Shown here: positions 134 through 11,200 of the stretch, piece after piece
Numbering within the stretch: the stretch's first letter is position 1
Layout: the number at the start of each line of letters is the position of its first letter
Assembly: GCF_003436425.1 (NCBI RefSeq)
Contig: NZ_QSPK01000070.1
Coordinates: forward strand, 1 to 11,200
DNA: 11,200 nucleotides
Direction: 5' to 3'
Source of the DNA: Eubacterium sp. TM05-53
Lineage (GTDB): Bacteria; Bacillota_I; Bacilli_A; Erysipelotrichales; Erysipelotrichaceae
Notes under the pieces: generated by a model
The model's database searches: none
What the model was told of the DNA's origin: nothing
Seen by the model: only the letters and a program-made list of their open reading frames with translations
Made by a program: the position numbers and the translations under genes

Positions 134-163
134 AAAAAAAGAAAAGAACAAATCTTTTCTCTT
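134..163 (-). terminator. Intrinsic terminator of the pcp operon
   Basis: On the minus strand an AGAAAAGA/TCTTTTCT stem (160-153 with 147-140) encloses a 5-base loop and runs into a T tract (140-134). The stem can extend by a G-U and two A-U pairs back into the pcp stop codon. It lies directly after the pcp stop and faces the plus-strand terminator at 93-126. Confidence 0.7.
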
Positions 164-809
164 AATGCGTTTCTCCAGTAACCACTTTAATATCCGTATC
201 ACTCTCTAACATAGCTTCTACAGACAATTCAATGGCTTTAGCAATATCTTTTAAATTCATTCCAGGAGTTCCTGCTGGCTGATTTACTGTTTGTTCAGTC
301 GCAAAAGGTACATGCATAAAGCCACCTTTTACATCTTTAAATTCTGTATGACAATAATGCAATACAGAATACATTACATCGTTACAAACATAAGTACCTG
401 CTGTATAACTAACACTTGCTGGAATTCCATTTTCCTTCATTTTTTCAACCATTCTAAATACAGGAAGCATTGTAAAATAAGCTTCTGGCCCATTTTCTAC
501 AACACTTGTCTGCAAAGGTTGATTGCCTTCATTATCGGCAATTCTGGCATTTCTAAAGTTAATACCCACCCATTCTGGTGTGACTTGACTTCTTCCTCCT
601 GCTTGACCAATACACAATACAAAATTTGGCTGATTCTCTTGAATCGCTTCATAAACTGCATCTGGCCCTTTTTGAAATACTGTAGGAATTTCTTTCTTAA
701 CGATTTTTGCCCCACCAATTTCATCCGGCAATAATTTAACAGCTTCATAAGCTGGATTGATTTTTTCTCCTCCAAAAGGATCAAAACCTGTAATTAATAC
801 TTTTTTCAT
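162..809 (-). CDS. pcp: Pyroglutamyl-peptidase I (pyrrolidone-carboxylate peptidase)
   Basis: A cytoplasmic cysteine peptidase of family C15 that removes N-terminal pyroglutamate (5-oxoproline) from peptides. The 215-residue length is normal for the family. The N-terminus carries the conserved ITGFDPFGG (6-14). The catalytic triad is visible: Glu79 in the GGRSQVTPEW segment, Cys142 in AGTYVCNDVMY and His166 in GFMHVPF, each two positions before the Glu81/Cys144/His168 numbering of the Bacillus amyloliquefaciens enzyme. The start has an AGGAGA site that overlaps the TAG stop of the preceding DUF979 gene, leaving a 13-base gap, so the two genes are cotranscribed and probably translationally linked. 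Downstream is a terminator at 134-163. Linkage to the DUF969/DUF979 transporter suggests that the released 5-oxoproline is moved by it. The assignment is secure. Confidence 0.96.
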   Translation of the reverse strand: MKKVLITGFDPFGGEKINPAYEAVKLLPDEIGGAKIVKKEIPTVFQKGPDAVYEAIQENQPNFVLCIGQAGGRSQVTPEWVGINFRNARIADNEGNQPLQTSVVENGPEAYFTMLPVFRMVEKMKENGIPASVSYTAGTYVCNDVMYSVLHYCHTEFKDVKGGFMHVPFATEQTVNQPAGTPGMNLKDIAKAIELSVEAMLESDTDIKVVTGETH

Positions 810-822
810 AACATTTCATCTC

Positions 823-1776
823 CTATGACATCATGATCATCATGACGATTTGTACCACTAACATTATTACGGCAACAAGCACCTGTTTTTTAATGACACC
901 ATTTTTATCTTTCATTTCTAAAATTGCGACAGGAACCATATTAAAGTTTGCTGCCATTGGCGTACATAGTGTACCACAATATCCACAAGTTAATGCTAAT
1001 GAACCAATCACAACTGGATCTGCCCCATATTTAAGTACAAATGGTGCCCCAATCCCAACTGTCATTACGGTAATTGCCGCAAAAGCATTTCCCATGATCA
1101 TGGTAAATACGGCCATACCAATCGCATAAACAATAATTCCAATTGTGACATTGCCTGCAGGAATAATATTCGATACTAAACCAGAAATCACATCACCTAC
1201 GCCTGCAGCCGTAAAAACAGCCCCTAAAGCCGCAAGTAACATTGGAAGCATACTTAATGGACCAACCACATCCATCATTCTACGACAATCTTTCAAGAAA
1301 ACACTAGGCGTATTTGCTTTTGAATAGATACGCAAAATAATCATGGCTACAAATACACCCACAGTCATACCAACTAATGGTGAAATCTTAGTAAAGAATG
1401 CAGCTAACAACGCAAATAAACCAATACATACTGCTGGAATAAATACTTTTGAACCGATTTTCTTGTTGTTTTGTTCCATTTCTTCAAGAGTAGGTTCAGG
1501 CTCATTACCAGGTGAAACTTTCTTTAAGATTGGAGGCAATACCAAGATGATCAATAAAATACCATCCGCTAAAGCTGGTAACCATTTACCTAACACAAAC
1601 ATAAGTCCTAAATCAAACCAGAAAATAAAAGAACCAACATTATTTTTATTTTCTTTATCTTTTAGATTTTTAAAGGCAACATAAATAGAAATCAATCCAA
1701 TAAGACAATACATGATTTCTAATAGTTTTTCTGAAAGTGTAACATCCACACTTGTATAGAATTGAATTGGATTCAT
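823..1776 (-). CDS. DUF979 family membrane protein, putative 5-oxoproline transporter subunit
   Basis: A 317-residue polytopic inner-membrane protein with about eight or nine hydrophobic segments, for example near 18-35, 51-83, 111-129, 133-150, 170-191, 209-229, 231-248, 254-272 and 298-316. A hydrophilic loop lies at 84-110. Conserved-looking blocks are MGNAFAAITVMTVGIGAPF (228-246) and TCGYCGTLCTPMAANFNM (263-280), re-entrant-like glycine-rich stretches. It matches the DUF979 family, which is habitually encoded beside DUF969 and pcp and annotated as half of a two-component 5-oxoproline transporter. The start ATG overlaps the DUF969 stop by one base (TAATG), and its AGAAGGGAG site lies inside the last codons of that gene, which indicates strong translational coupling and probably 1:1 subunit synthesis. 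Family membership is confident; substrate and direction of transport are inferred from family and context. Confidence 0.9.
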   Translation of the reverse strand: MNPIQFYTSVDVTLSEKLLEIMYCLIGLISIYVAFKNLKDKENKNNVGSFIFWFDLGLMFVLGKWLPALADGILLIILVLPPILKKVSPGNEPEPTLEEMEQNNKKIGSKVFIPAVCIGLFALLAAFFTKISPLVGMTVGVFVAMIILRIYSKANTPSVFLKDCRRMMDVVGPLSMLPMLLAALGAVFTAAGVGDVISGLVSNIIPAGNVTIGIIVYAIGMAVFTMIMGNAFAAITVMTVGIGAPFVLKYGADPVVIGSLALTCGYCGTLCTPMAANFNMVPVAILEMKDKNGVIKKQVLVAVIMLVVQIVMMIMMS

Positions 1777-2447
1777 TATTTAGTCTCCCTTCTAGACAAT
1801 TGTTTATCTTTAATATAGTAATACACGATTGCGACAGCTACGGCAATAATTGCCACTGGAATTTGTACTTTCATTAAATCGACCAATTCAACATTGTATC
1901 CTAAGCCAGCTAATGTAGATTGCACTAAGATCATTCCACTTGTTCCTACAAACAAAACTTGCCCAAAGAACCATGCGATATTTTCCATACCACTTGCCAT
2001 TCCTTTTAAGTTTTCTTCATACTTTTCACTGATCTTTTTACCATTTTTCTTAGCTGCAGCAGTCGCCATAGGCAATACAATAGGACGAACAAATCCGGCA
2101 ACGCCACCAAAGCTTACATTAAATGCCGCAAAGACTAGACGGAATACACCATAAATCGCAAGAACAACACCGGCTGATGCATTTTTAAATTTCTTCATTA
2201 AATTAGCTGCTGCTTGTTTTAAACCATTTCTTTCCAGAGTTCCCGTAACTACCATAACCATCACAAACACGCACATACTGCGATTAGCGACGAAGCTTGA
2301 TCCAAGTGTTTCCAAGAAAGTAACTGGATCCATACCTGCAACAAGTGCAGTCACAATAGCGGCAATCATAATAATCAAAATCGAATCCAATTTTAATACA
2401 AATCCGATTACAACAATTAGAATGCCTAATAATTTCAATAATTCCAT
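1776..2447 (-). CDS. DUF969 family membrane protein, putative 5-oxoproline transporter subunit
   Basis: A 223-residue integral membrane protein, first gene of the pcp operon. Hydrophobic segments lie near 3-19, 21-38, 56-70, 91-112, 155-182 and 194-212. Recognisable family stretches are NRSMCVFVMVMVVTGTLERN (55-74) and FGGVAGFVRPIVLPMA (113-128). A cytoplasm-like basic patch (133-148) follows, and the C-terminus is positively charged. DUF969 proteins occur paired with DUF979 proteins and are annotated as the other half of a 5-oxoproline transporter. The ATG at 2447 has only a weak purine-rich leader (GAGAGAATGAAAGATT). A second ATG ten bases upstream is out of frame. An extended -10 promoter lies about 50 bases upstream. 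Function rests on family and on the gene order DUF969-DUF979-pcp. Confidence 0.9.
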   Translation of the reverse strand: MELLKLLGILIVVIGFVLKLDSILIIMIAAIVTALVAGMDPVTFLETLGSSFVANRSMCVFVMVMVVTGTLERNGLKQAAANLMKKFKNASAGVVLAIYGVFRLVFAAFNVSFGGVAGFVRPIVLPMATAAAKKNGKKISEKYEENLKGMASGMENIAWFFGQVLFVGTSGMILVQSTLAGLGYNVELVDLMKVQIPVAIIAVAVAIVYYYIKDKQLSRRETK

Positions 2448-2495
2448 AATCTTTCATTCTCTCTTTCATATTTCTTACAGAAATTTACATCTGAA

Positions 2496-2504
2496 ATTAT
2501 ATCA
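2496..2504 (-). promoter_or_regulatory. Extended -10 promoter of the DUF969-DUF979-pcp operon
   Basis: On the minus strand TGATATAAT (2504-2496) is a perfect -10 hexamer preceded by the TGn extension. There is no good -35 match; TTGTTT at 16-base spacing falls at the edge of the preceding terminator's T tract. The predicted transcript starts near 2489, giving an untranslated leader of about 40 bases. No operator-like repeat was seen between promoter and start codon. Confidence 0.65.
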
Positions 2505-2521
2505 TATTCTTCAACAAAAAC

Positions 2522-2548
2522 AAAAAAAATGGATCAAACGATCCATTT
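2522..2548 (-). terminator. Intrinsic terminator of the HAD-dipeptidase unit
   Basis: On the minus strand a perfect 9-bp stem (AAATGGATC, loop GTTT, GATCCATTT) runs straight into a T8 tract at 2529-2522. The stem begins inside the TAA stop codon of the dipeptidase gene. Termination here separates that unit from the pcp operon promoter about 20 bases further on. Confidence 0.85.
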
Positions 2549-3539
2549 ACAACACTTCTTTATAAACTCTTAATACATTCTTATAGAAGATTTTTTCTAC
2601 TTCTTCTTGTGTAAGCCCTGCCTTATATAAAGCTTCTTCTAATAGATTCATCATAGAAGCATCTTCAATTTCTAAAGGACATGAAATCCCATCAAAATCT
2701 GTACCTAATCCAATGACATCAATTCCTGCAAGATCTTTGATATATAGAATATGTTTCACCATATCTTCGACACAACTCTTGTGATCATCACGATCCGCTA
2801 AGAAACTGCCACAGAAATTAAGTCCCATGACACCACCACGTTTTGCCAATTGAAGAATCATATCATCACTCATATTACGTGCTACATTACATACACTTCT
2901 TGCGTTTGAATGTGATGCCACAAATGGTTTTGTCGTATATTTCAATACATCATAGAAACCAGCATCATTTAAGTGAGAAACATCAACGATCATGCCTAGT
3001 CTTTCCATTTCTTTTACATATGAAATTCCAAACTCTGTCAATCCTCTTTCTGTATCTACACTACGCTTATAGTTAGGTCGATTTCCATTCATATCTTTCA
3101 TAGAAAGGTTTGGATAACCAATTCCATTCTCATAATTCCATGTTAGTGCAATCATTCTTACACCCATGCGATAGTAGTTTCTTAACATTGCTAAATCATT
3201 GAAGCAAACACCACCATCTTCTAAAGTTAATAAGCTTGATAATTTTCCTTCTTTATCATTCTTCTCAATATCACTAAACGTATATACAGGTGCAATATAA
3301 TCTGCATACTTATCCATTTGTGTACAATATTCATCATACAAACGCATTGTCTGTTGCTCAGGAATAGCTAGTTCTTTTTGATCTGTAAACAACGCAAAAT
3401 TCTGTAATAAATAATTACCCTTTTTCATTTTTTCCAAATCAATCGACAAATCATTTGAATACAAACTTGCCTCTTTCCCTTTTAAATCACGACTCAATAA
3501 TTCTAGAATCGTATCACAATGCATATCGACTACTCTCAT
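2547..3539 (-). CDS. Peptidase M19 family dipeptidase (membrane dipeptidase-like)
   Basis: A 330-residue zinc dipeptidase of the renal (membrane) dipeptidase family, which hydrolyses a range of dipeptides, often including ones with a D-residue at the C-terminal side. Metal-site residues of the (beta/alpha)8 fold are in place: His7 and Asp9 in DMHCDT, Glu107 in LTLEDGG (bridging ligand), His189 in VDVSHL and His210 in VASHSNARS; Asp281 and Asp283 lie in GLGTDFDG. There is no signal peptide, so it should be cytoplasmic despite the family name. An in-frame GTG lies 21 bases upstream (3560), but the ATG at 3539 is preferred: it has AAAGGAG eight bases upstream and begins at the family's usual point. 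The gap to the upstream HAD stop is two bases, so the pair is an operon. A dedicated terminator follows. Confidence 0.93.
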   Translation of the reverse strand: MRVVDMHCDTILELLSRDLKGKEASLYSNDLSIDLEKMKKGNYLLQNFALFTDQKELAIPEQQTMRLYDEYCTQMDKYADYIAPVYTFSDIEKNDKEGKLSSLLTLEDGGVCFNDLAMLRNYYRMGVRMIALTWNYENGIGYPNLSMKDMNGNRPNYKRSVDTERGLTEFGISYVKEMERLGMIVDVSHLNDAGFYDVLKYTTKPFVASHSNARSVCNVARNMSDDMILQLAKRGGVMGLNFCGSFLADRDDHKSCVEDMVKHILYIKDLAGIDVIGLGTDFDGISCPLEIEDASMMNLLEEALYKAGLTQEEVEKIFYKNVLRVYKEVL

Positions 3540-3541
3540 TT

Positions 3542-4348
3542 TTATAACTCCTTTAACCACTCTATACAGCCATCTTCATAACATGAAGGAACAATTTTTT
3601 TTGCGACTTTTTTACATGCTTCACAACCATTTTCAAGAGTAACACCAAGACCAGATGCTTCTAATACAGGCGCATCACTTGAACCATCTCCGATGGAACT
3701 GACATCTTTCCAAGAGATTTCAAGATTCTTCAACAAGCGGTTCACACTATTTAACTTTTCACAATCCTTATGAATAATGTCAATCATCGTATCTGTACTA
3801 TGCACAACTTTTACATTACAATTTAATTCAATAATCGATTTCATTTCATCATAAATTGAATCAATTCGTGATTTTGAATCCGATATAGACACTTTCCACA
3901 CAGAACCCTTTAAATATTTTTCCATGTGATTCGTTAAAATGTAATCCACATCACAATTATGCATGTCCAGTTCAAATCCATGTGTCATTTTATTTGCCAC
4001 AAAATAATCGGGTTGACTATATCCAACGCCTAAATTATGCTTTTGAGCATATTGCCAAATAAATGAAACATCGTTATTTGAGATTACATACTCAAACATC
4101 GTCTTTTTCATTTTCACATCAAAACAATGGGCTCCATTACAACTAATGACATATCCACCAAAATCTTGCATCAAAATCTGCTTAGACAATGGATATACGC
4201 CTTGAAAGCATCGAGCTGAATTTAATACGACTAAGACATCTCTTTTTTCAACTTCAATCAATGCTTCTTTAACAGCTTCATTGACATAGATTCCACTACT
4301 CGGATTCATTAAAGATCCATCTAAATCACATACAATTGTCCTGACCAT
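3542..4348 (-). CDS. Cof-type HAD-IIB family hydrolase
   Basis: A 268-residue cytoplasmic haloacid-dehalogenase phosphatase, probably acting on sugar phosphates or other small phosphate esters; the substrate is unknown. Motif I is CDLDGSL (nucleophile Asp8, acid/base Asp10). Motif II is LNSAR (Ser44), where many relatives have S/T-x-R. The motif III lysine is probably Lys198. Motif IV is IGDGSSDAPVLE (Asp221, Asp225), in which the usual Asn of GDxxND is Ser. The C2-type cap lies between about 82 and 190. Length and layout match Cof/YidA-like proteins. The ATG at 4348 has AAGGAAG six bases upstream. Two bases separate its stop from the M19 dipeptidase start, and that gene's ribosome site lies inside this gene's end. 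No strong promoter was seen between it and the enolase terminator; the pair may have a weak promoter of its own or depend on read-through. Confidence 0.88.
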   Translation of the reverse strand: MVRTIVCDLDGSLMNPSSGIYVNEAVKEALIEVEKRDVLVVLNSARCFQGVYPLSKQILMQDFGGYVISCNGAHCFDVKMKKTMFEYVISNNDVSFIWQYAQKHNLGVGYSQPDYFVANKMTHGFELDMHNCDVDYILTNHMEKYLKGSVWKVSISDSKSRIDSIYDEMKSIIELNCNVKVVHSTDTMIDIIHKDCEKLNSVNRLLKNLEISWKDVSSIGDGSSDAPVLEASGLGVTLENGCEACKKVAKKIVPSCYEDGCIEWLKEL

Positions 4349-4392
4349 ATAGCACTTCCTTTTACTTGTTTAATAGTAATACGAAACGCCAC

Positions 4393-4417
4393 AAAAAAAA
4401 AGACCCCGAAGGGTCTT
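4393..4417 (-). terminator. Intrinsic terminator of eno
   Basis: On the minus strand AAGACCC-TTCG-GGGTCTT is a 7-bp stem capped by a C(UUCG)G tetraloop, an exceptionally stable loop. It continues directly into a run of eight further T residues (4400-4393 region). It lies 27 bases after the enolase stop codon. This is the strongest-looking terminator in the window, fitting a highly transcribed gene. Confidence 0.92.
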
Positions 4418-4443
4418 AATTAGCTAAAGTTCTTAGTGAAATA

Positions 4444-5796
<1,353 letters not shown>

Positions 5797-5809
5797 TTAA
5801 GCTAATAAA

Positions 5810-5838
5810 ATAATAGCACGCAAGCCATCTAAAATCAA
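5810..5838 (-). promoter_or_regulatory. Promoter of eno
   Basis: On the minus strand TTGATT (5838-5833), a 17-base spacer and TATTAT (5815-5810) with a TGC extension just before the -10 form a strong sigma-A-type promoter. The -35 overlaps the TGA stop codon of the preceding U32 gene. The predicted start is near 5803, leaving a leader of about 30 bases that holds the GAGGAGG site. No operator was seen. Confidence 0.8.
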
Positions 5839-8000
5839 CGATTATAGGCTCTGAAAGCGGTTTTAACTTCCTCTTGGTTCTCATCAGTAAACACAAAGCG
5901 GAAATGTTTTATTCCATACGATTCATAATCTTTTCGATTTTCAATTTCATTCATAATATTCACATCATATAATCGCATGTGACAATCTTTATCTCCAAAT
6001 AAAAAGACACGCTTTCCATCTAAGCCTTCAAGCTCATAACGATGATGATGGCACAAACCGCAATTCATTCTCTTACCATCTTTTAAAGCCGTATTTACAG
6101 GACAATGTTTCATCGTCATCAAGCGTCGTTTCTGATATAAAGTCTTATAGACTGGAGCATTAAAATGATAACGAGCCATAAATGCCTTCATCAACGCTTC
6201 AACTTGATATGTATCACATTCATCACTTAAAACACAACTTTCATATCCCATCTCTAAGATAGCAGCCACACTATATGAATTGGAAATATTTAATGAATCT
6301 ACGATCTTTCCATCCCCTAAATGCGCATTGACTACACCATGGATTCCTGTAATATTCGACTTATTTAATACATTCTCATTATTCAACATTTCACTTACAT
6401 AACAACTTGAATCATCCACCTTTTGATTCACTGCATTAATTTCAAATAAATCAAACGTTGTCTTACTTTCAGTTGGAACATAACTATATTCTTTTTCAAC
6501 AATCATTCCTTGTTTTAAACATGCCTCTTTCGTTTTTTCTAGAGCATCCCTTCGAAGTTGGTTCATCACAGAAATTGGAAAATAAATATCTTTACCCAAA
6601 TGATATTCAATCTGATCAAAACTTGCCCAACTATCTTTTGTCTTAGAAAACTGTTTATTCAATGTTTCTTCATCCGTTGCCCGCTTTAAAGCTTTAACAC
6701 TATTAATATCCGTAGAAACATTAACTCTTGTCGAATCCTTATATACTTCCATCACCATAGGCATTCCAACTGCACTACAAGTCACAATCGCATTGACCTT
6801 GCTTTGACGATTGGATGTACGAATTCTTTCCTCGATTGTTTTATTCAACTCAGAATCCATCGTTTTACGAACAACACTGCCTACATGCACACCTGCAGGT
6901 CCTTCAATTAGTACAGTATTATTTTTTGACATAAAAGAAATCAACTTTTGTTTCTTATCATACATAAAATTTACGTTACAACCCAAGTTTTCTCTTTCAA
7001 AACGAATGCCATCATTTTGATGAAGGTCTTGACTCAATTGAATACAAATCTTATTTTTATTTACCTTAACAACTTTACCAATTTCAATTCCTTGATGATT
7101 ACAAGTTTTACTATTCATTAATTCTTTGCCAGTCGCCTTATACATATGTCCTAAAGTATATTCACGATTGAATGTAACACGCAAGTTTTGTTCATCCAAA
7201 TTACTTCGTTGAATATTCTCTAATACTTTTTTGACTTGTGAAACACTCTCATATACATAAGGAGCACTTTTCATTCGTCCTTCAATTTTTAAGGAACAAA
7301 CACCCATATCCGCTAATGTATTGACTTCATCCATTAAAGATAAATCTTTAGGACTTAATACATAATCTCCATGCGTATCCACTTTATTTCCATCTTCATA
7401 AAGGTTATATTTCATACGACATGGCTGCGCACACATACCTCGATTTCCACTTCGTCCATAATGCACACTTGAAAAATAACATTGTCCCGAATAACAAATA
7501 CATAAAGCTCCATGCACAAAAACTTCCACTTCAATTCCTGTATCTACACAGGCTTGAATTTCTTCTTTTGTACATTCTCTAGCTAAAACAACACGTTGAA
7601 CACCTAATTTTTTTAGTTGTTCAATTTGATAAGGATTAGAAACTGAAAGCTGAGTAGAAGCATGTAGCACCAAATTGGGTAGTCTATGATGCAAAAGATG
7701 AATAAATCCTAAATCTTGAATGATCAAAGCATCTACACCAAAAGAATGAACCATCTTTGCCATATTGTAGGCATCCTCAATTTCATCCTCATATAATATA
7801 GTATTCATCGTAATATATACTTTTACGCCACACAAATGACATCTTTCAATGACTTCTTTTGTGGTTTTTAAATCAAAATTATTTGCGAATGCCCTAGCCC
7901 CAAAACTAGGCAATCCAAAATAAACGGCATCACACCCTGCCGCTAAGGCTGCATTTAATGCTTCCATACTTCCTACGGGTGCTAATATTTCTGGTCTCAT
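5835..8000 (-). CDS. Peptidase U32 family protein, RlhA-like (probable RNA hydroxylase)
   Basis: A 721-residue cytoplasmic protein. The N-terminal U32 domain (about 1-250) begins with the family's MRPEILAPVGS. It contains SGQC and GRSGNRGMCAQPCR with Cys167, Cys174, Cys190 and Cys194, the expected Fe-S ligands. A DUF3656-type region lies at about 385-500 (ending in QLRRDALEK). A C-terminal part has a second Cys cluster (Cys633, Cys647, Cys650, Cys673) within HCPVN, NCGLC and DKDCHMRLYD. This is the architecture of E. coli RlhA (YdcP), which makes 5-hydroxycytidine in 23S rRNA; related U32 proteins (TrhP) hydroxylate tRNA uridine. The old label 'protease' is probably wrong for this branch. The RNA target is not known. 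The ATG at 8000 is chosen over an in-frame TTG at 8018 because GAAAGGAG lies eight bases before it. It follows the metal repressor gene, with a hairpin between them. Family assignment is firm, activity inferred. Confidence 0.88.
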   Translation of the reverse strand: MRPEILAPVGSMEALNAALAAGCDAVYFGLPSFGARAFANNFDLKTTKEVIERCHLCGVKVYITMNTILYEDEIEDAYNMAKMVHSFGVDALIIQDLGFIHLLHHRLPNLVLHASTQLSVSNPYQIEQLKKLGVQRVVLARECTKEEIQACVDTGIEVEVFVHGALCICYSGQCYFSSVHYGRSGNRGMCAQPCRMKYNLYEDGNKVDTHGDYVLSPKDLSLMDEVNTLADMGVCSLKIEGRMKSAPYVYESVSQVKKVLENIQRSNLDEQNLRVTFNREYTLGHMYKATGKELMNSKTCNHQGIEIGKVVKVNKNKICIQLSQDLHQNDGIRFERENLGCNVNFMYDKKQKLISFMSKNNTVLIEGPAGVHVGSVVRKTMDSELNKTIEERIRTSNRQSKVNAIVTCSAVGMPMVMEVYKDSTRVNVSTDINSVKALKRATDEETLNKQFSKTKDSWASFDQIEYHLGKDIYFPISVMNQLRRDALEKTKEACLKQGMIVEKEYSYVPTESKTTFDLFEINAVNQKVDDSSCYVSEMLNNENVLNKSNITGIHGVVNAHLGDGKIVDSLNISNSYSVAAILEMGYESCVLSDECDTYQVEALMKAFMARYHFNAPVYKTLYQKRRLMTMKHCPVNTALKDGKRMNCGLCHHHRYELEGLDGKRVFLFGDKDCHMRLYDVNIMNEIENRKDYESYGIKHFRFVFTDENQEEVKTAFRAYNR

Positions 8001-8016
8001 TTTCCTTGCTCCTTTC

Positions 8017-8047
8017 AAAATAAAAGCTACAGATACAATCTATAGCT
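8017..8047 (-). terminator. Intrinsic terminator or attenuator between the metal repressor and U32 genes
   Basis: In minus-strand RNA, AGCUAUAGAU (8047-8038) pairs with AUCUGUAGCU (8034-8025) over ten bases with one U-G wobble and a 3-base loop. TTTTATTTT follows. The stem starts within the repressor's TAG stop codon, and the U-rich tract ends at the U32 gene's ribosome-binding site. The interrupted tract and tight loop suggest partial termination. No good promoter was found for the U32 gene downstream of it. Confidence 0.6.
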
Positions 8048-8417
8048 AGTCTTTATTATTTTGATAATACTTTTTAATTGCCTCAAAAGATTCTTGCGAA
8101 ATCACATGTTCAATACGACAAGCATCTTCTGTCGCAATATTTTTAGGTACCCCAATATTTTGTAGCATTTCTGAAAAGAAAATATGACGCTCATATGTTT
8201 CTTCTGCGATTTTCTTTCCTTCTTCACTCAAAGTTAAAAATTTACTAACATCTAAAGCAATTAATCCTTGCTCAGACAATAATTTTACGGCATGTGAGAC
8301 GCTAGGCTTAGAAAAACCCAAATAACTTGCGACATCAACGCTACGAACATGATCTAAACATTTTGATAAAACTAATATGGCTTCTAAATAATCTTCCATC
8401 GATTCGCCTAACTGCAT
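8046..8417 (-). CDS. DtxR/MntR-family metal-dependent transcriptional repressor
   Basis: A winged-helix regulator that binds DNA when loaded with Fe(II) or Mn(II) and normally represses metal uptake. About 123 residues hold only the DNA-binding and dimerisation domains, as in MntR, with no C-terminal SH3/FeoA-like domain. The recognition helix is around SKPSVSHAVKLL (36-47). Candidate metal ligands, counted from the preferred start, are Asp9 and Glu12 (MEDYLEA), His78 (YERH), Cys100, Glu103 and His104 (DACRIEHVIS). The first pair resembles MntR (Asp8/Glu11), while Cys100 replaces MntR Glu99 and resembles DtxR/IdeR Cys102, so the metal specificity is unclear. The ATG at 8417 is preferred over one at 8423, because AGAGGAG lies eight bases before the former and only two before the latter. 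It is divergent from the tetR gene with a good promoter of its own, and its transcript can continue into the U32 gene. Confidence 0.88.
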   Translation of the reverse strand: MQLGESMEDYLEAILVLSKCLDHVRSVDVASYLGFSKPSVSHAVKLLSEQGLIALDVSKFLTLSEEGKKIAEETYERHIFFSEMLQNIGVPKNIATEDACRIEHVISQESFEAIKKYYQNNKD

Positions 8418-8446
8418 ATTCATTACTCCTCTAACTCTTTTTTTTA

Positions 8447-8475
8447 ATTTTAAGCTAGTCCTCTTTTAAAGTCAA
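8447..8475 (-). promoter_or_regulatory. Promoter of the DtxR-family gene
   Basis: On the minus strand TTGACT (8475-8470), a 17-base spacer and TAAAAT (8452-8447) match the vegetative promoter consensus at five of six positions each. The predicted start is near 8440, giving a leader of about 23 bases that contains AGAGGAG. The -35 ends one base from the palindrome at 8477-8486, so a protein bound there could affect both divergent genes. Confidence 0.72.
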
Positions 8476-8476
8476 T

Positions 8477-8486
8477 TGTCATGACA
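8477..8486. promoter_or_regulatory. Palindromic operator candidate between divergent promoters
   Basis: TGTCATGACA is a perfect 10-bp palindrome wedged between the -35 of the dtxR-type gene (ends 8475) and the -10 of tetR (starts 8487). The position suits a repressor site covering both promoters; TetR-family autoregulation is the simplest guess. No second copy was noticed in the window, so the binding protein is unknown. Confidence 0.4.
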
Positions 8487-8492
8487 TATAAT
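8487..8492 (+). promoter_or_regulatory. -10 element of tetR, predicted leaderless start
   Basis: A perfect TATAAT ends seven bases before the A of the chosen ATG (8499), so transcription should begin at or within a base or two of the start codon. The -35 region is weak (TTTTAA near 8464), which fits an activator-dependent or repressible promoter. No Shine-Dalgarno site lies before the start codon. Confidence 0.55.
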
Positions 8493-8498
8493 AGTTGT

Positions 8499-9017
8499 AT
8501 GAACGATACAAAACTAACGATCGCAAATGCGCTATTAATTCTATTAAAGACACAATCATTAAACAAGATTACAGTCACGCAGATCACAAAAGAAGCAAAT
8601 CTAACAAGACAAACATTTTATCGTAATTTTGAAGATAAAGAAGATCTAGTGAATTGGTATTTTGAAAAGCTATGCCTAGACTCTTTTAAAGAAATGGCTG
8701 ATCAAACCACTTTAAAAGAAGCTTTGATCAAAAAATTCACTTTTATCCAAAGCCAAAACACATTCTTTAAAGAAGATGACTACAATTCTTTGACAAACTA
8801 TGACTATCGCTGTATCTATGATTTCTACAAAAAGAAAATCGAAACAAAAACAACAATTGATCCACAACTAGACTTTCTACTTCAAATGTATTGTCATGGA
8901 TCTATTGAAATGACTAAGTCCTGGGTCGAAAAAAATATGTATCTAGATATAGAAACGCTAGTCAATATGTTGATTGAATCCATGCCCGAAAGATTGAAAC
9001 AATATGTCAATCTTTAA
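8499..9017 (+). CDS. TetR/AcrR-family transcriptional regulator
   Basis: A 172-residue one-component regulator. The N-terminal TetR helix-turn-helix is clear: helices across 7-18 and 25-33, then LTRQTFYRNFEDKEDLVNWYF (35-55) containing the signature T-x-TFYRNF-xx-KEDL. The C-terminal ligand domain (about 60-172) is diverged. Its YCHGSIEMTKSWVEKNM segment (about 131-147) resembles the second domain of the small AcrR/DhaS-like regulators common in Bacillota; the inducer is unknown. An in-frame ATG at 8481 would add six residues but overlaps the palindrome and lies upstream of the TATAAT, so the ATG at 8499 is chosen. Neither has a ribosome-binding site, and the transcript is predicted leaderless. 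It is divergent from the DtxR-type gene, and its last 11 bases overlap the convergent pentapeptide-repeat gene. It probably regulates itself and perhaps a neighbour. Confidence 0.88.
   Translation: MNDTKLTIANALLILLKTQSLNKITVTQITKEANLTRQTFYRNFEDKEDLVNWYFEKLCLDSFKEMADQTTLKEALIKKFTFIQSQNTFFKEDDYNSLTNYDYRCIYDFYKKKIETKTTIDPQLDFLLQMYCHGSIEMTKSWVEKNMYLDIETLVNMLIESMPERLKQYVNL
8989..9015. terminator. Shared hairpin at the tail-to-tail overlap
   Basis: AAAGATTGA (8989-8997) and TCAATCTTT (9007-9015) form a perfect 9-bp stem with a 9-base loop. It covers the pentapeptide gene's stop codon (9009-9007) and the first base of the tetR stop codon (9015-9017). Neither strand has a proper T tract after the stem, so it may be a weak bidirectional terminator or an RNA 3'-end stabiliser rather than a classical terminator. 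Confidence 0.4.
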
Positions 9018-9621
9018 CTACAATACCTAAAAGTCTCACAAATTCAAGTGCCTGGGATGAATTCACGACAACACCTGTTAATTTATCACTCGACACAGCA
9101 ATGTTTTCAATTTCACAGCTTGAGAAATCAAGCTCTTTTAATTTTGTGTTAAACCATTCCGTTGAATTTAATATACATTTATCAAATGAAGAATTTTTAA
9201 AATTACATTGAACAAATTCTGAACCCGTTAAATCATTGATGTCAAATGCACAATCTTTAAATGTACTGCCACCAAAGTCACAATAATGTCCTTTGCATAA
9301 TTGAAATAATGTGTCTTGAACTAAGCTTTGTGAAAGTTCCATCCCACTGATTCGACAAGAAATGAAATGAACACGGCTTAAACTACATTGATTCAAGTGT
9401 ACATTTACAAATTCACAGTGATCAAAAATAATATCCATACATTCAATAAAGCTAAAGCTACAATCATTAATTTGACACTTGCTAAATTTACACCCATCCA
9501 TCGTGATATTATCTAAGTTTTCTTCAATACAAACATTCTCAAATATATAATCACTCACATACGATTCATATGTCCATTCATCCATTGGTTCTAAACAATT
9601 ATTTATTTTTAGTTTTTTCAT
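9007..9621 (-). CDS. Pentapeptide-repeat protein, Cys-rich
   Basis: A 204-residue protein. From about residue 41 to 185 it shows a five-residue periodicity, with Phe/Ile/Leu at the central position and Cys/Ser/Val two before it (for example CKFSK-CQIND-CSFSF at 44-58, then CEFVN, CSLSR, CRISG, CAFDI, CNFKN and CILNS). This predicts a right-handed quadrilateral beta-helix. Fifteen Cys residues, mostly at the inward i-2 position, make it unusually Cys-rich. Some members of the fold (Qnr, MfpA) mimic DNA and bind gyrase, but nothing here shows that role and the substrate is unknown. There is no signal peptide or membrane segment. The ATG overlaps the upstream gene's TGA (ATGA), and no Shine-Dalgarno is present, so translation probably depends on coupling to that gene. 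Its end overlaps tetR by 11 bp in a convergent arrangement. Confidence 0.85.
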   Translation of the reverse strand: MKKLKINNCLEPMDEWTYESYVSDYIFENVCIEENLDNITMDGCKFSKCQINDCSFSFIECMDIIFDHCEFVNVHLNQCSLSRVHFISCRISGMELSQSLVQDTLFQLCKGHYCDFGGSTFKDCAFDINDLTGSEFVQCNFKNSSFDKCILNSTEWFNTKLKELDFSSCEIENIAVSSDKLTGVVVNSSQALEFVRLLGIVVKD

Positions 9622-10220
9622 ATATTTTTGATTTTTAATAATACTTCCTGATTAAACAAGACATCTTTTAATAATTGTAAATCTTCATAACTCACAAAAT
9701 CATACTCTGCACGATTTAAAATAATATAGATTTGTTGAAGAGCATTTTTAAGTTCCATCCATCCTTCTGGCGTACCAAACGCTTCATCAAACAACTTATG
9801 AATGTTGTCCTCATTCATTAAAGGATATAAATAGGAATAGATGGTTGTCGTTGAAGGATTATTAAATCCATCAAAGAAATTCTTAAAGATAGGGTAGATA
9901 TATTTTCGTAACATGTTCAAAGTGGCTTTCGCATAAAATAAGGCACTCGCACTAAAATCAACATCCTTTACATCTTCATAATAGACTTCCAAATCACTTC
10001 CTGCTTCGATTTGATCTAAGGCACTTCCCGGAAAATCTGCATAATCTTCTTCATTTATATTTAAAGCTTCATAAAAGTCCGTTTCTTCTTCAGACTCTTC
10101 GTTTTGTTTCATATTATTCATCATATTTTGAGCCATGTCATTTAACTTATTCTTTTCTTCATCGCTCATATTGTCCATCATTCTTGAAATGGCTGAAAAA
10201 TCAATATCACTAAATTTCAT
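9618..10220 (-). CDS. Acidic protein of unknown function
   Basis: I do not recognise the family of this 200-residue protein. Residues 1-60 are hydrophilic, Met- and Asn-rich and strongly acidic, with helical stretches (SDEEKNKLNDMAQNMMNNM at 19-37) and an EESEEET patch (41-47), probably coiled or disordered. Residues 89-200 are helical with hydrophobic and aromatic positions (TLNMLRKYIYPIFKNFFDGF, 100-119; GWMELKNALQQIYIILNRA, 153-171), suggesting a compact all-helical domain. There is no signal peptide, and the segments are too charged to be clearly transmembrane. An in-frame ATG at 10256 exists, but the ATG at 10220 is preferred because a GAGGT site lies seven to eight bases upstream and the TATAAT at 10251-10246 fits its leader. 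It is the first gene of a coupled pair with the pentapeptide-repeat gene (4-base overlap), so the two products may act together. Confidence 0.75.
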   Translation of the reverse strand: MKFSDIDFSAISRMMDNMSDEEKNKLNDMAQNMMNNMKQNEESEEETDFYEALNINEEDYADFPGSALDQIEAGSDLEVYYEDVKDVDFSASALFYAKATLNMLRKYIYPIFKNFFDGFNNPSTTTIYSYLYPLMNEDNIHKLFDEAFGTPEGWMELKNALQQIYIILNRAEYDFVSYEDLQLLKDVLFNQEVLLKIKNI

Positions 10221-10245
10221 GTTTATTACCTCATTTCTAACAAGT

Positions 10246-10251
10246 ATTATA
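10246..10251 (-). promoter_or_regulatory. -10 element of the acidic-protein/pentapeptide pair
   Basis: On the minus strand TATAAT (10251-10246) would start transcription near 10239, leaving a leader of about 19 bases with TGAGGT. The hexamer at 17-base spacing (TGTTAA) is a poor -35. The divergent promoter of the VanX-like gene begins about 14 bases away on the other strand. Confidence 0.5.
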
Positions 10252-10264
10252 CACAAAACATAAG

Positions 10265-10293
10265 TGGATTAACATAAACAAATATATTAAAAT
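10265..10293 (+). promoter_or_regulatory. Promoter of the VanX-like gene, predicted leaderless
   Basis: TGGATT (10265-10270), a 17-base spacer and TAAAAT (10288-10293) place the predicted transcription start at 10300, the A of the start codon. An overlapping TATATT (10283-10288) would give a leader of about five bases. Neither option leaves room for a Shine-Dalgarno site, and none is present. The region is very AT-rich, so the exact hexamer is uncertain. Confidence 0.45.
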
Positions 10294-10299
10294 ATATAC

Positions 10300-10914
10300 A
10301 TGAAATTATTAAATATACAAAAAGAAATCCCCGATATTCTTTTAGATATTCGCTATTGCACAACTTACAATTTCATCGGTGAAATCATTGATGGCTATAT
10401 AGATCCGGTAGCGTTAGGAACAAAAGAATTGGTGAAGCAATTAAAAGTAATCAATTCAAAGGCAAGACAAATGGGATATCGATTAAAGATATGGGATGCC
10501 TATCGACCTCAAAGTGCCCTTGATCATTTCATGACTTGGAAAGATACTGAGGATGATAAAATGAAATCCATTTTCTATCCAAAATATTCCAAAAAATATC
10601 TTTTTGAGAATGACTTTATCATTGAAAAATCAGCGCACACCAGAGGTAGCACTGTCAATTTAACTTTAGTTGATGAAAAAACAGGAAAAGAATTAGATAT
10701 GGGATCTTACTTTGATTATTTTGGCGATATTTCTAGTCCATTATACACAAAAGGATTAACGAATCATCAAATAAACAATCGCAAGACACTTAGAAATTTA
10801 ATGTTAGACAATGGATTTATCCCTTTAGAATCCAAGTGGTGGCACTATACTTTAAAGGATGAACCCTATCCAGATACTTATTTTAATGTGGAGGTAAAAT
10901 CTGATGGAAACTAA
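10300..10914 (+). CDS. VanX/DdpX-family D-Ala-D-Ala dipeptidase homologue, probably inactive
   Basis: A 204-residue member of peptidase family M15D, full length compared with VanX (202 residues). Conserved stretches are LDIRYCTTYNF (15-25), IWDAYRPQSAL (64-74, Arg69 equivalent to VanX Arg71), SAHTRGSTVNLTL (111-123), NGFIPL (171-176) and WWHYTLKDEPYPDTYF (180-195). VanX binds zinc with His116, Asp123 and His184 and uses Glu181 as catalytic base. Here the His residues are kept (His113, His182), but the Asp is Asn120 (codon AAT at 10657-10659) and the Glu is Lys179 (AAG at 10834-10836). Loss of a zinc ligand and the base predicts no dipeptidase activity, although the rest of the fold is well kept, suggesting a pseudoenzyme with a retained role. 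There is no signal peptide, so it is cytoplasmic. No Shine-Dalgarno is present. Its end overlaps the next gene by 11 bp. No vanA/H/R/S genes are nearby. Confidence 0.9.
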   Translation: MKLLNIQKEIPDILLDIRYCTTYNFIGEIIDGYIDPVALGTKELVKQLKVINSKARQMGYRLKIWDAYRPQSALDHFMTWKDTEDDKMKSIFYPKYSKKYLFENDFIIEKSAHTRGSTVNLTLVDEKTGKELDMGSYFDYFGDISSPLYTKGLTNHQINNRKTLRNLMLDNGFIPLESKWWHYTLKDEPYPDTYFNVEVKSDGN

Positions 10915-11173
10915 ATTATGGTCCGCTTTAATTGGTCTTTCTAAAACCGTGGATTCTAATCCAAAAACAGAACATACAGACTCAATCATCATGGATTGTC
11001 TTCAACATTTAAAAAATCATACGGTAACACAAGATCTAATTGATTTAGTGCATAAAGAAAAAGACAAAATATCACCAGGATGTAAAACGTGTACGCATCC
11101 TTGTGGCAATACAAGTGATTATGACATGTCTTTGATTAATGATAAAAAAAGCCCATCAAATCATATAAAATGA
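10904..11173 (+). CDS. Small protein with CxxCxxxC motif, unknown function
   Basis: An 89-residue protein that I cannot place in a named family with confidence. The first 55 residues look helical, with conserved-looking hydrophobic spacing (METKLWSALIGLSK; LIDLVHKEKDKI). They are followed by GCKTCTHPCGNTSDYDM (59-75), in which Cys60, Cys63 and Cys67 form a C-x2-C-x3-C site suited to binding a metal or Fe-S cluster, with Cys32 as a possible fourth ligand. The C-terminus is short, polar and lysine-rich. It starts inside the VanX-like gene (11-bp overlap) with GGAGG about nine bases before the ATG, in good position, so it is coexpressed and probably translationally linked. The stop codon lies within the terminator stem. 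A redox or metal role is only a guess. Confidence 0.78.
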   Translation: METKLWSALIGLSKTVDSNPKTEHTDSIIMDCLQHLKNHTVTQDLIDLVHKEKDKISPGCKTCTHPCGNTSDYDMSLINDKKSPSNHIK

Positions 11174-11190
11174 TTTGTATGGGCGCTTTT
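11144..11190. terminator. Bidirectional intrinsic terminator
   Basis: GCCCATCAAATCAT (11151-11164) pairs with ATGATTTG-T-ATGGGC (11170-11184) over 14 bp with one bulged T and a 5-base loop. Reading minus, the stem is followed by seven T residues (11150-11144), a strong terminator. Reading plus, it is followed by GCTTTT, a weaker one. It ends the VanX-like unit, whose last stop codon is in the stem. The better minus-side tract suggests a convergent gene right of the window. Confidence 0.8.
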
Positions 11191-11200
11191 CATTTGCCAA

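What the first reader, a model, noticed from the sequence alone, without database searches (positions are those of the whole stretch)
10300..10914. VanX-type dipeptidase with both a zinc ligand and the catalytic Glu replaced
The protein follows VanX along its whole length, including the WWHY..DEPYP ending. However, the HxxxxxxD zinc motif reads H113...N120, and the catalytic ExxH reads K179xxH182. Each change needs only one G-to-A transition (GAT to AAT; GAG to AAG), yet the frame is intact and nearby family residues are kept. This looks like a pseudoenzyme, perhaps a D-Ala-D-Ala sensor or binder, or a very recently inactivated gene.
Basis: partly seen in the sequence, partly recalled or inferred. 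Interest (0 to 1): 0.7.

Follow-up and report, generated by a model that had tools for sequence, protein, structure and literature searches.

The report
VanX-like dipeptidase, strain-private dead active site
A gut bacterium's gene for an enzyme that cuts the cell-wall building block D-Ala-D-Ala carries two changes at the reaction centre that its nearest relatives lack, so it is most likely a recently disabled copy (or a sequence error) rather than a new kind of sensor protein.

Summary
The 204-aa ORF at 10300-10914 is a full-length VanX-type M15 protein with Asn120 at the zinc Asp and Lys179 at the catalytic Glu; its model matches VanX 1r44 best, TM 0.88. The two nearest genomes held, Holdemanella porci and H. 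biformis (98% and 95% identical proteins, same locus), keep the family-typical residues. So do 41 of 41 loci at position 120 and 40 of 40 that reach position 179. No clade with Asn/Lys was found. These are the only window-private missense changes in the gene; the congeners' copies are constrained (dN 0.034, dS 0.199). Best reading: a recent, strain-private loss-of-function allele of an ordinary dipeptidase outside any van cluster. An artefact cannot be excluded, because the window's own assembly is not held. A conserved pseudoenzyme is unlikely but not excluded; same-species strains could not be read. What stays odd is that both private missense changes hit the catalytic centre (chance roughly 1 in 1000, uncorrected for how the finding was picked).

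The parts
10300..10914 (+). VanX-type M15 D-Ala-D-Ala dipeptidase homologue, 204 aa, predicted inactive
   Evidence: model pLDDT 92.6, best PDB match 1r44 TM 0.88
10504..10506 (+). codon 69, Arg (aligned with VanX Arg71, whose role is recalled), kept
   Evidence: R in 124 of the 124 relatives with a letter there
10636..10638 (+). codon 113, His, first zinc ligand position, kept
   Evidence: alignment
10657..10659 (+). codon 120, Asn at the zinc-Asp position; private to the window
10834..10836 (+). codon 179, Lys at the catalytic-Glu position; private to the window
10843..10845 (+). codon 182, His, last zinc ligand position, kept
   Evidence: alignment

Best explanation
This is the Holdemanella orthologue of a cytoplasmic VanX/DdpX-type D-Ala-D-Ala dipeptidase (no signal peptide apparent by eye), in a strain that has recently lost the activity. 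Intact relatives would bind Zn2+ through two His and an Asp and use a Glu as general base to split free D-Ala-D-Ala. In the window one zinc ligand is an amide and the base is a lysine, so hydrolysis should be abolished while the fold, and perhaps weak ligand binding, is kept. Shown: the residues, their privacy to the window and the conservation elsewhere. Inferred: loss of activity, recency, and tolerance because D-Ala-D-Ala cleavage is dispensable or costly.
For: Both nearest genomes held carry the typical residues at the same locus. None of the relatives examined carries Asn120 or Lys179. Only 4 window-private DNA changes lie in the gene, 2 silent and 2 missense, all of one transition class. 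The segment 8046-10914 is about 1% from H. porci, with 16 nonsynonymous and 6 synonymous codon differences, as expected of young, little-filtered change. The congeners' copies are constrained: dN 0.034, dS 0.199 between H. porci and H. biformis. Each congener has one Ddl-sized ligase; the other hits lie in frames of 1074 aa, which I take to be carbamoyl-phosphate synthase. No van cluster is among the window's ORFs. A review calls DdpX activity potentially lethal (PMC6403190, passages), which fits tolerated loss.
Against: Simple decay predicts scattered missense changes, frameshifts and stops. Instead both private missense changes hit the catalytic centre: 5 of 137 possible missense transitions of that class hit the five active-site codons, so about 0.0013 for two. 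The gene shows no excess of broken copies in Holdemanella-like protein clusters: 78 of 3983 members, against 208 of 2387 for the neighbouring pentapeptide gene; it is not generally being lost. The DNA upstream of the gene is conserved with both congeners.
Confidence: 0.57

Rival explanations
1. The letters are not faithful to a living strain: consensus, assembly or polishing errors, or text changed after sequencing, put the two substitutions into an otherwise ordinary intact gene.
For: The only private missense changes are two at near-invariant catalytic positions. Chance of this is about 0.0007-0.0013. The own assembly is not held, so the window's letters cannot be checked. A CpG hot spot does not explain them: outside the gene 2 private transitions at 321 CpG bases.
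Against: The 13 ORFs that I treated as genes are open and 8.6 kb align to H. porci in one collinear stretch. Two silent private changes sit in the same gene.
Confidence: 0.3
2. A true pseudoenzyme: a catalytically dead VanX fold kept in this lineage to bind D-Ala-D-Ala or a protein partner, somewhat as Sonic hedgehog uses a LAS domain for signalling.
For: Frame, upstream DNA, fold and the other active-site residues are kept. Two catalytic residues are lost with no other private missense change. [quoted passage not shown]
Against: None of the relatives examined shares the residues. The segment is very young relative to H. porci, so selection has had little time to show. Hedgehog keeps its zinc ligands and Glu, and the same paper argues that it is a peptidase after all, so the precedent is weak; hedgehog chains in the fold search are weak too (best E 0.027, TM 0.36). 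No new neighbour gene: the aligned stretch is collinear with both congeners.
Confidence: 0.1
3. The protein is still an active enzyme with altered chemistry or substrate (Asn as a metal ligand, Lys as base).
For: Nothing direct; the His ligands and Arg are kept.
Against: The positions are near-invariant in the family. A solved structure of the related VanY bears E175A (title of 5hnm); that this is the equivalent Glu, changed to inactivate, is my inference.
Confidence: 0.03

Closest known systems
VanX of Enterococcus faecium (PDB 1r44), M15 D-Ala-D-Ala dipeptidase
   Same: Near whole-length homology (residues 12-200), same fold (TM 0.88, 34% identity), same His ligands, Arg and C-terminal motif
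   Different: Asn for the zinc Asp and Lys for the catalytic Glu; no van cluster in the window; below the NCBIfam VanX equivalog cut-off
H. porci LKV-472-APC-3 and H. biformis DSM 3989 orthologues (L001/L010, L002/L011)
   Same: 98% and 95% identical, same locus
   Different: They keep the family-typical active-site residues
Sonic hedgehog N-terminal domain (LAS group)
   Same: Zinc centre that maps onto VanX (PMC4102407, passages); a weak match in the fold search; a LAS domain with a signalling role
   Different: Hedgehog keeps all zinc ligands and the Glu, and whether it is a peptidase is disputed

Membership tests
M15 / VanX-type D-Ala-D-Ala dipeptidase (homology) | Full-length match to PF01427 and to VanX | tested here: met
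M15 / VanX-type D-Ala-D-Ala dipeptidase (active enzyme) | HxxxxxxD...H zinc triad | tested here: not met
   Asn120 at the Asp position
M15 / VanX-type D-Ala-D-Ala dipeptidase (active enzyme) | Catalytic Glu of ExxH | tested here: not met
   Lys179
M15 / VanX-type D-Ala-D-Ala dipeptidase (active enzyme) | Hydrolysis of D-Ala-D-Ala | not testable with these tools
   needs a protein assay
VanX of a vancomycin-resistance operon | Adjacent vanH/vanA-type ligase and vanRS | tested here: not met
   None among the window's ORFs (10 proteins scanned in Pfam, the HAD-like, enolase and U32-like ORFs named by eye). The gene lies about 290 bases from the window's end, so what follows is unseen. One Ddl-sized ligase per congener genome
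VanX of a vancomycin-resistance operon | NCBIfam NF033115 equivalog score of at least 320 | tested here: not met
   192.4 bits
Clade-fixed pseudoenzyme | Substitutions shared by a clade | tested here: not met
   Asn120 in 0 of 41 and Lys179 in 0 of 40 loci that reach the position; 0 of 142 and 0 of 148 proteins. Same-species strains not available
Clade-fixed pseudoenzyme | Purifying selection after loss of catalysis | not testable with these tools
   a single sequence carries the allele

The most novel reading that the evidence does not exclude
A pseudo-VanX fixed in one Holdemanella lineage: a full-length VanX fold that has lost a zinc ligand and the catalytic base, and is selected as a D-Ala-D-Ala binder or regulator instead of an enzyme.
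Probability: 0.08. Interest if true: 0.55.

Novelty: new member of a known kind. Interest (0 to 1): 0.2.

Why it matters
As it stands, it matters little: a single-sequence loss-of-function allele, or an error, in a dispensable peptidase. It would matter if other strains shared it, because a dead VanX fold kept by selection would be an unusual non-enzymatic LAS peptidase in bacteria. I know of none; that is recollection. The search 'pseudoenzyme' with 'VanX' found no paper. A second search found 13 papers, 8 listed, and their titles and abstract openings name no inactive VanX; I did not read them, apart from passages of PMC4102407. It also warns annotation pipelines that a full-length VanX-like hit need not mean activity.

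Tried and rejected
Recurrent decay of this gene in Holdemanella was considered, because fragment clusters exist (P0013 with 54 members and P0016 with 20, and P0012 and P0125, all of which I read from their protein letters as frameshifted). It was rejected as specific evidence: the neighbouring pentapeptide gene has a larger share of broken cluster members, 208 of 2387 against 78 of 3983. Choices in that tally are mine. For the VanX-like gene I counted as full P0002-P0005 and as broken P0009, P0010, P0012, P0013, P0016 and P0040; less similar clusters (P0006-P0008, P0011 and the rest) were dropped as other species. For the control I dropped P0163, P0171 and P0175. The two lists are not fully alike: only the best 120 of 7938 hits are shown, so weaker fragments are missed, and a second search with residues 98-204 added 73 members in short fragments. 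Only representatives, not members, were seen, and I read the letters of only 7 of the control clusters.

A CpG mutation hot spot was considered and rejected: CpG transitions elsewhere in the aligned window are not enriched. A bias of the private changes to one transition class was considered: 4 of 4 in the gene against 3 of 10 in the rest of 8001-11150, Fisher p 0.07, inconclusive. Recombination as a source was rejected because none of the relatives examined carries the residues. A plasmid origin was not supported: no DNA match of 9900-11200 in plasmids. As a protein, 459 plasmid records match, all below 60% identity, 402 of them Enterococcus; 2 phage records match. The promoter scan was at background (8 found, 6.9 expected) and it found no terminator. 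The paper search for named VanX active-site residues listed 10 of 34 papers; passages of one, PMC9866002, held nothing on them. The search for Holdemanella with D-Ala-D-Ala listed 3 papers, not read. One search failed on a missing file and was repeated. (a stretch of L003) was not used.

Full report
What is there. The ORF at 10300-10914 (+) encodes a 204-aa protein that matches Pfam Peptidase_M15 over residues 2-199 and E. faecium VanX (1r44) at E 2.8e-40 over residues 12-200. In the VanX alignment the His, Asp and His zinc positions and the catalytic Glu read His113, Asn120, His182 and Lys179 (roles recalled). Arg69 and the C-terminal WWHY..DEPYP are kept. An AlphaFold model from 46 natural sequences is confident (mean pLDDT 92.6), and its best PDB match is VanX, TM 0.88. 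Such a model is insensitive to point changes, so it shows the fold only, not function.

Where it is. The window's own assembly is not held. The window aligns collinearly to both: 96.3% over 2517-11151 to H. porci and 93.8% over 310-11151 to H. biformis. It is therefore most likely chromosomal Holdemanella DNA. There is no van cluster among the window's ORFs. Each congener has one PF01427 match and one Ddl-sized ligase. In the order, 75 of 315 genomes searched carry a match to the protein.

Are the substitutions shared? Not in what could be examined. Both congeners keep the typical residues. Of 41 loci examined (7, 6, 28; duplicates L010, L011, L046 and L047 left out, and the places without a locus not examined), 41 have Asp at position 120. 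40 have Glu at position 179 and one does not reach it. Of 152 other proteins aligned, 141 of 142 with a letter at 120 have Asp and 146 of 148 with a letter at 179 have Glu. The exceptions are a fragment out of register (P0142) and tails read as frameshifted (P0012, P0125). One metagenome singleton, P0051, lacks the first His, so stray active-site losses do occur. These 152 are the best-listed part of a far larger family (120 listed of 7938 hits, 32 more). The representatives P0002 and P0003, which stand for 1332 and 2562 members, have typical residues, but their members could not be read and the window's allele could hide there.

How young and how odd. Against both congeners the gene has four private changes, two silent and two missense, and the two missense changes are the ones at issue. 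H. porci against H. biformis gives dN 0.034 and dS 0.199; without the divergent block of codons 146-170 it gives 0.009 and 0.104. The congeners' copies are therefore constrained. In 8046-10914 the window differs from H. porci by 16 nonsynonymous and 6 synonymous codons, a mark of young, little-filtered variation. Five of 137 possible missense transitions of the class seen hit the five active-site codons (35 of 1363 over all classes), so two independent chance hits have a probability of about 0.0013 or 0.0007. One hit suffices to kill the enzyme (inference). The second remains unexplained by simple decay, which is why I keep substantial weight on artefact and some on pseudoenzyme.

Control against me. 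I expected broken copies to be commoner in this gene if it were dispensable. They are not: 78 of 3983 members against 208 of 2387 for the neighbouring pentapeptide gene, with the caveats told under Tried and rejected. The gene appears maintained in the genus, and the window is the exception.

Mechanism. With a zinc ligand turned into an amide and the general base into a lysine, hydrolysis of D-Ala-D-Ala should be lost (inference from the family mechanism: PMC4087270 and PMC4102407, passages). Loss may be tolerated because cutting D-Ala-D-Ala drains the product of Ddl; a review calls DdpX activity potentially lethal (PMC6403190, passages). Verdict: recent strain-private inactivation most likely, artefact next, pseudoenzyme least of the three.

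Noticed in passing
window 10904-11173 (+): 89-aa ORF overlapping the end of the VanX-like gene, with a Cys cluster CKTCTHPCG; no Pfam or NCBIfam match at E 0.001. The stretch up to 11151 aligns in both congeners.
   Followed up: no
window 6001-8000: The U32-type gene is far more diverged from H. porci (about 11% in 6001-7200; 25 private missense changes in the gene) than its neighbours, suggesting local recombination. The name U32 is recalled, not searched.
   Followed up: no
window 162-3560 (-): Pyroglutamyl peptidase, DUF979, DUF969 and an M19 dipeptidase lie in a row on one strand, perhaps a peptide-use operon.
   Followed up: no
P0051 (metagenome protein): VanX-like protein with Tyr at the first zinc His; a single-member cluster.
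   Followed up: no
L001 and L002, codons 146-170 of the gene: Block of dense differences between H. porci and H. biformis, which looks like allele replacement.
   Followed up: partly
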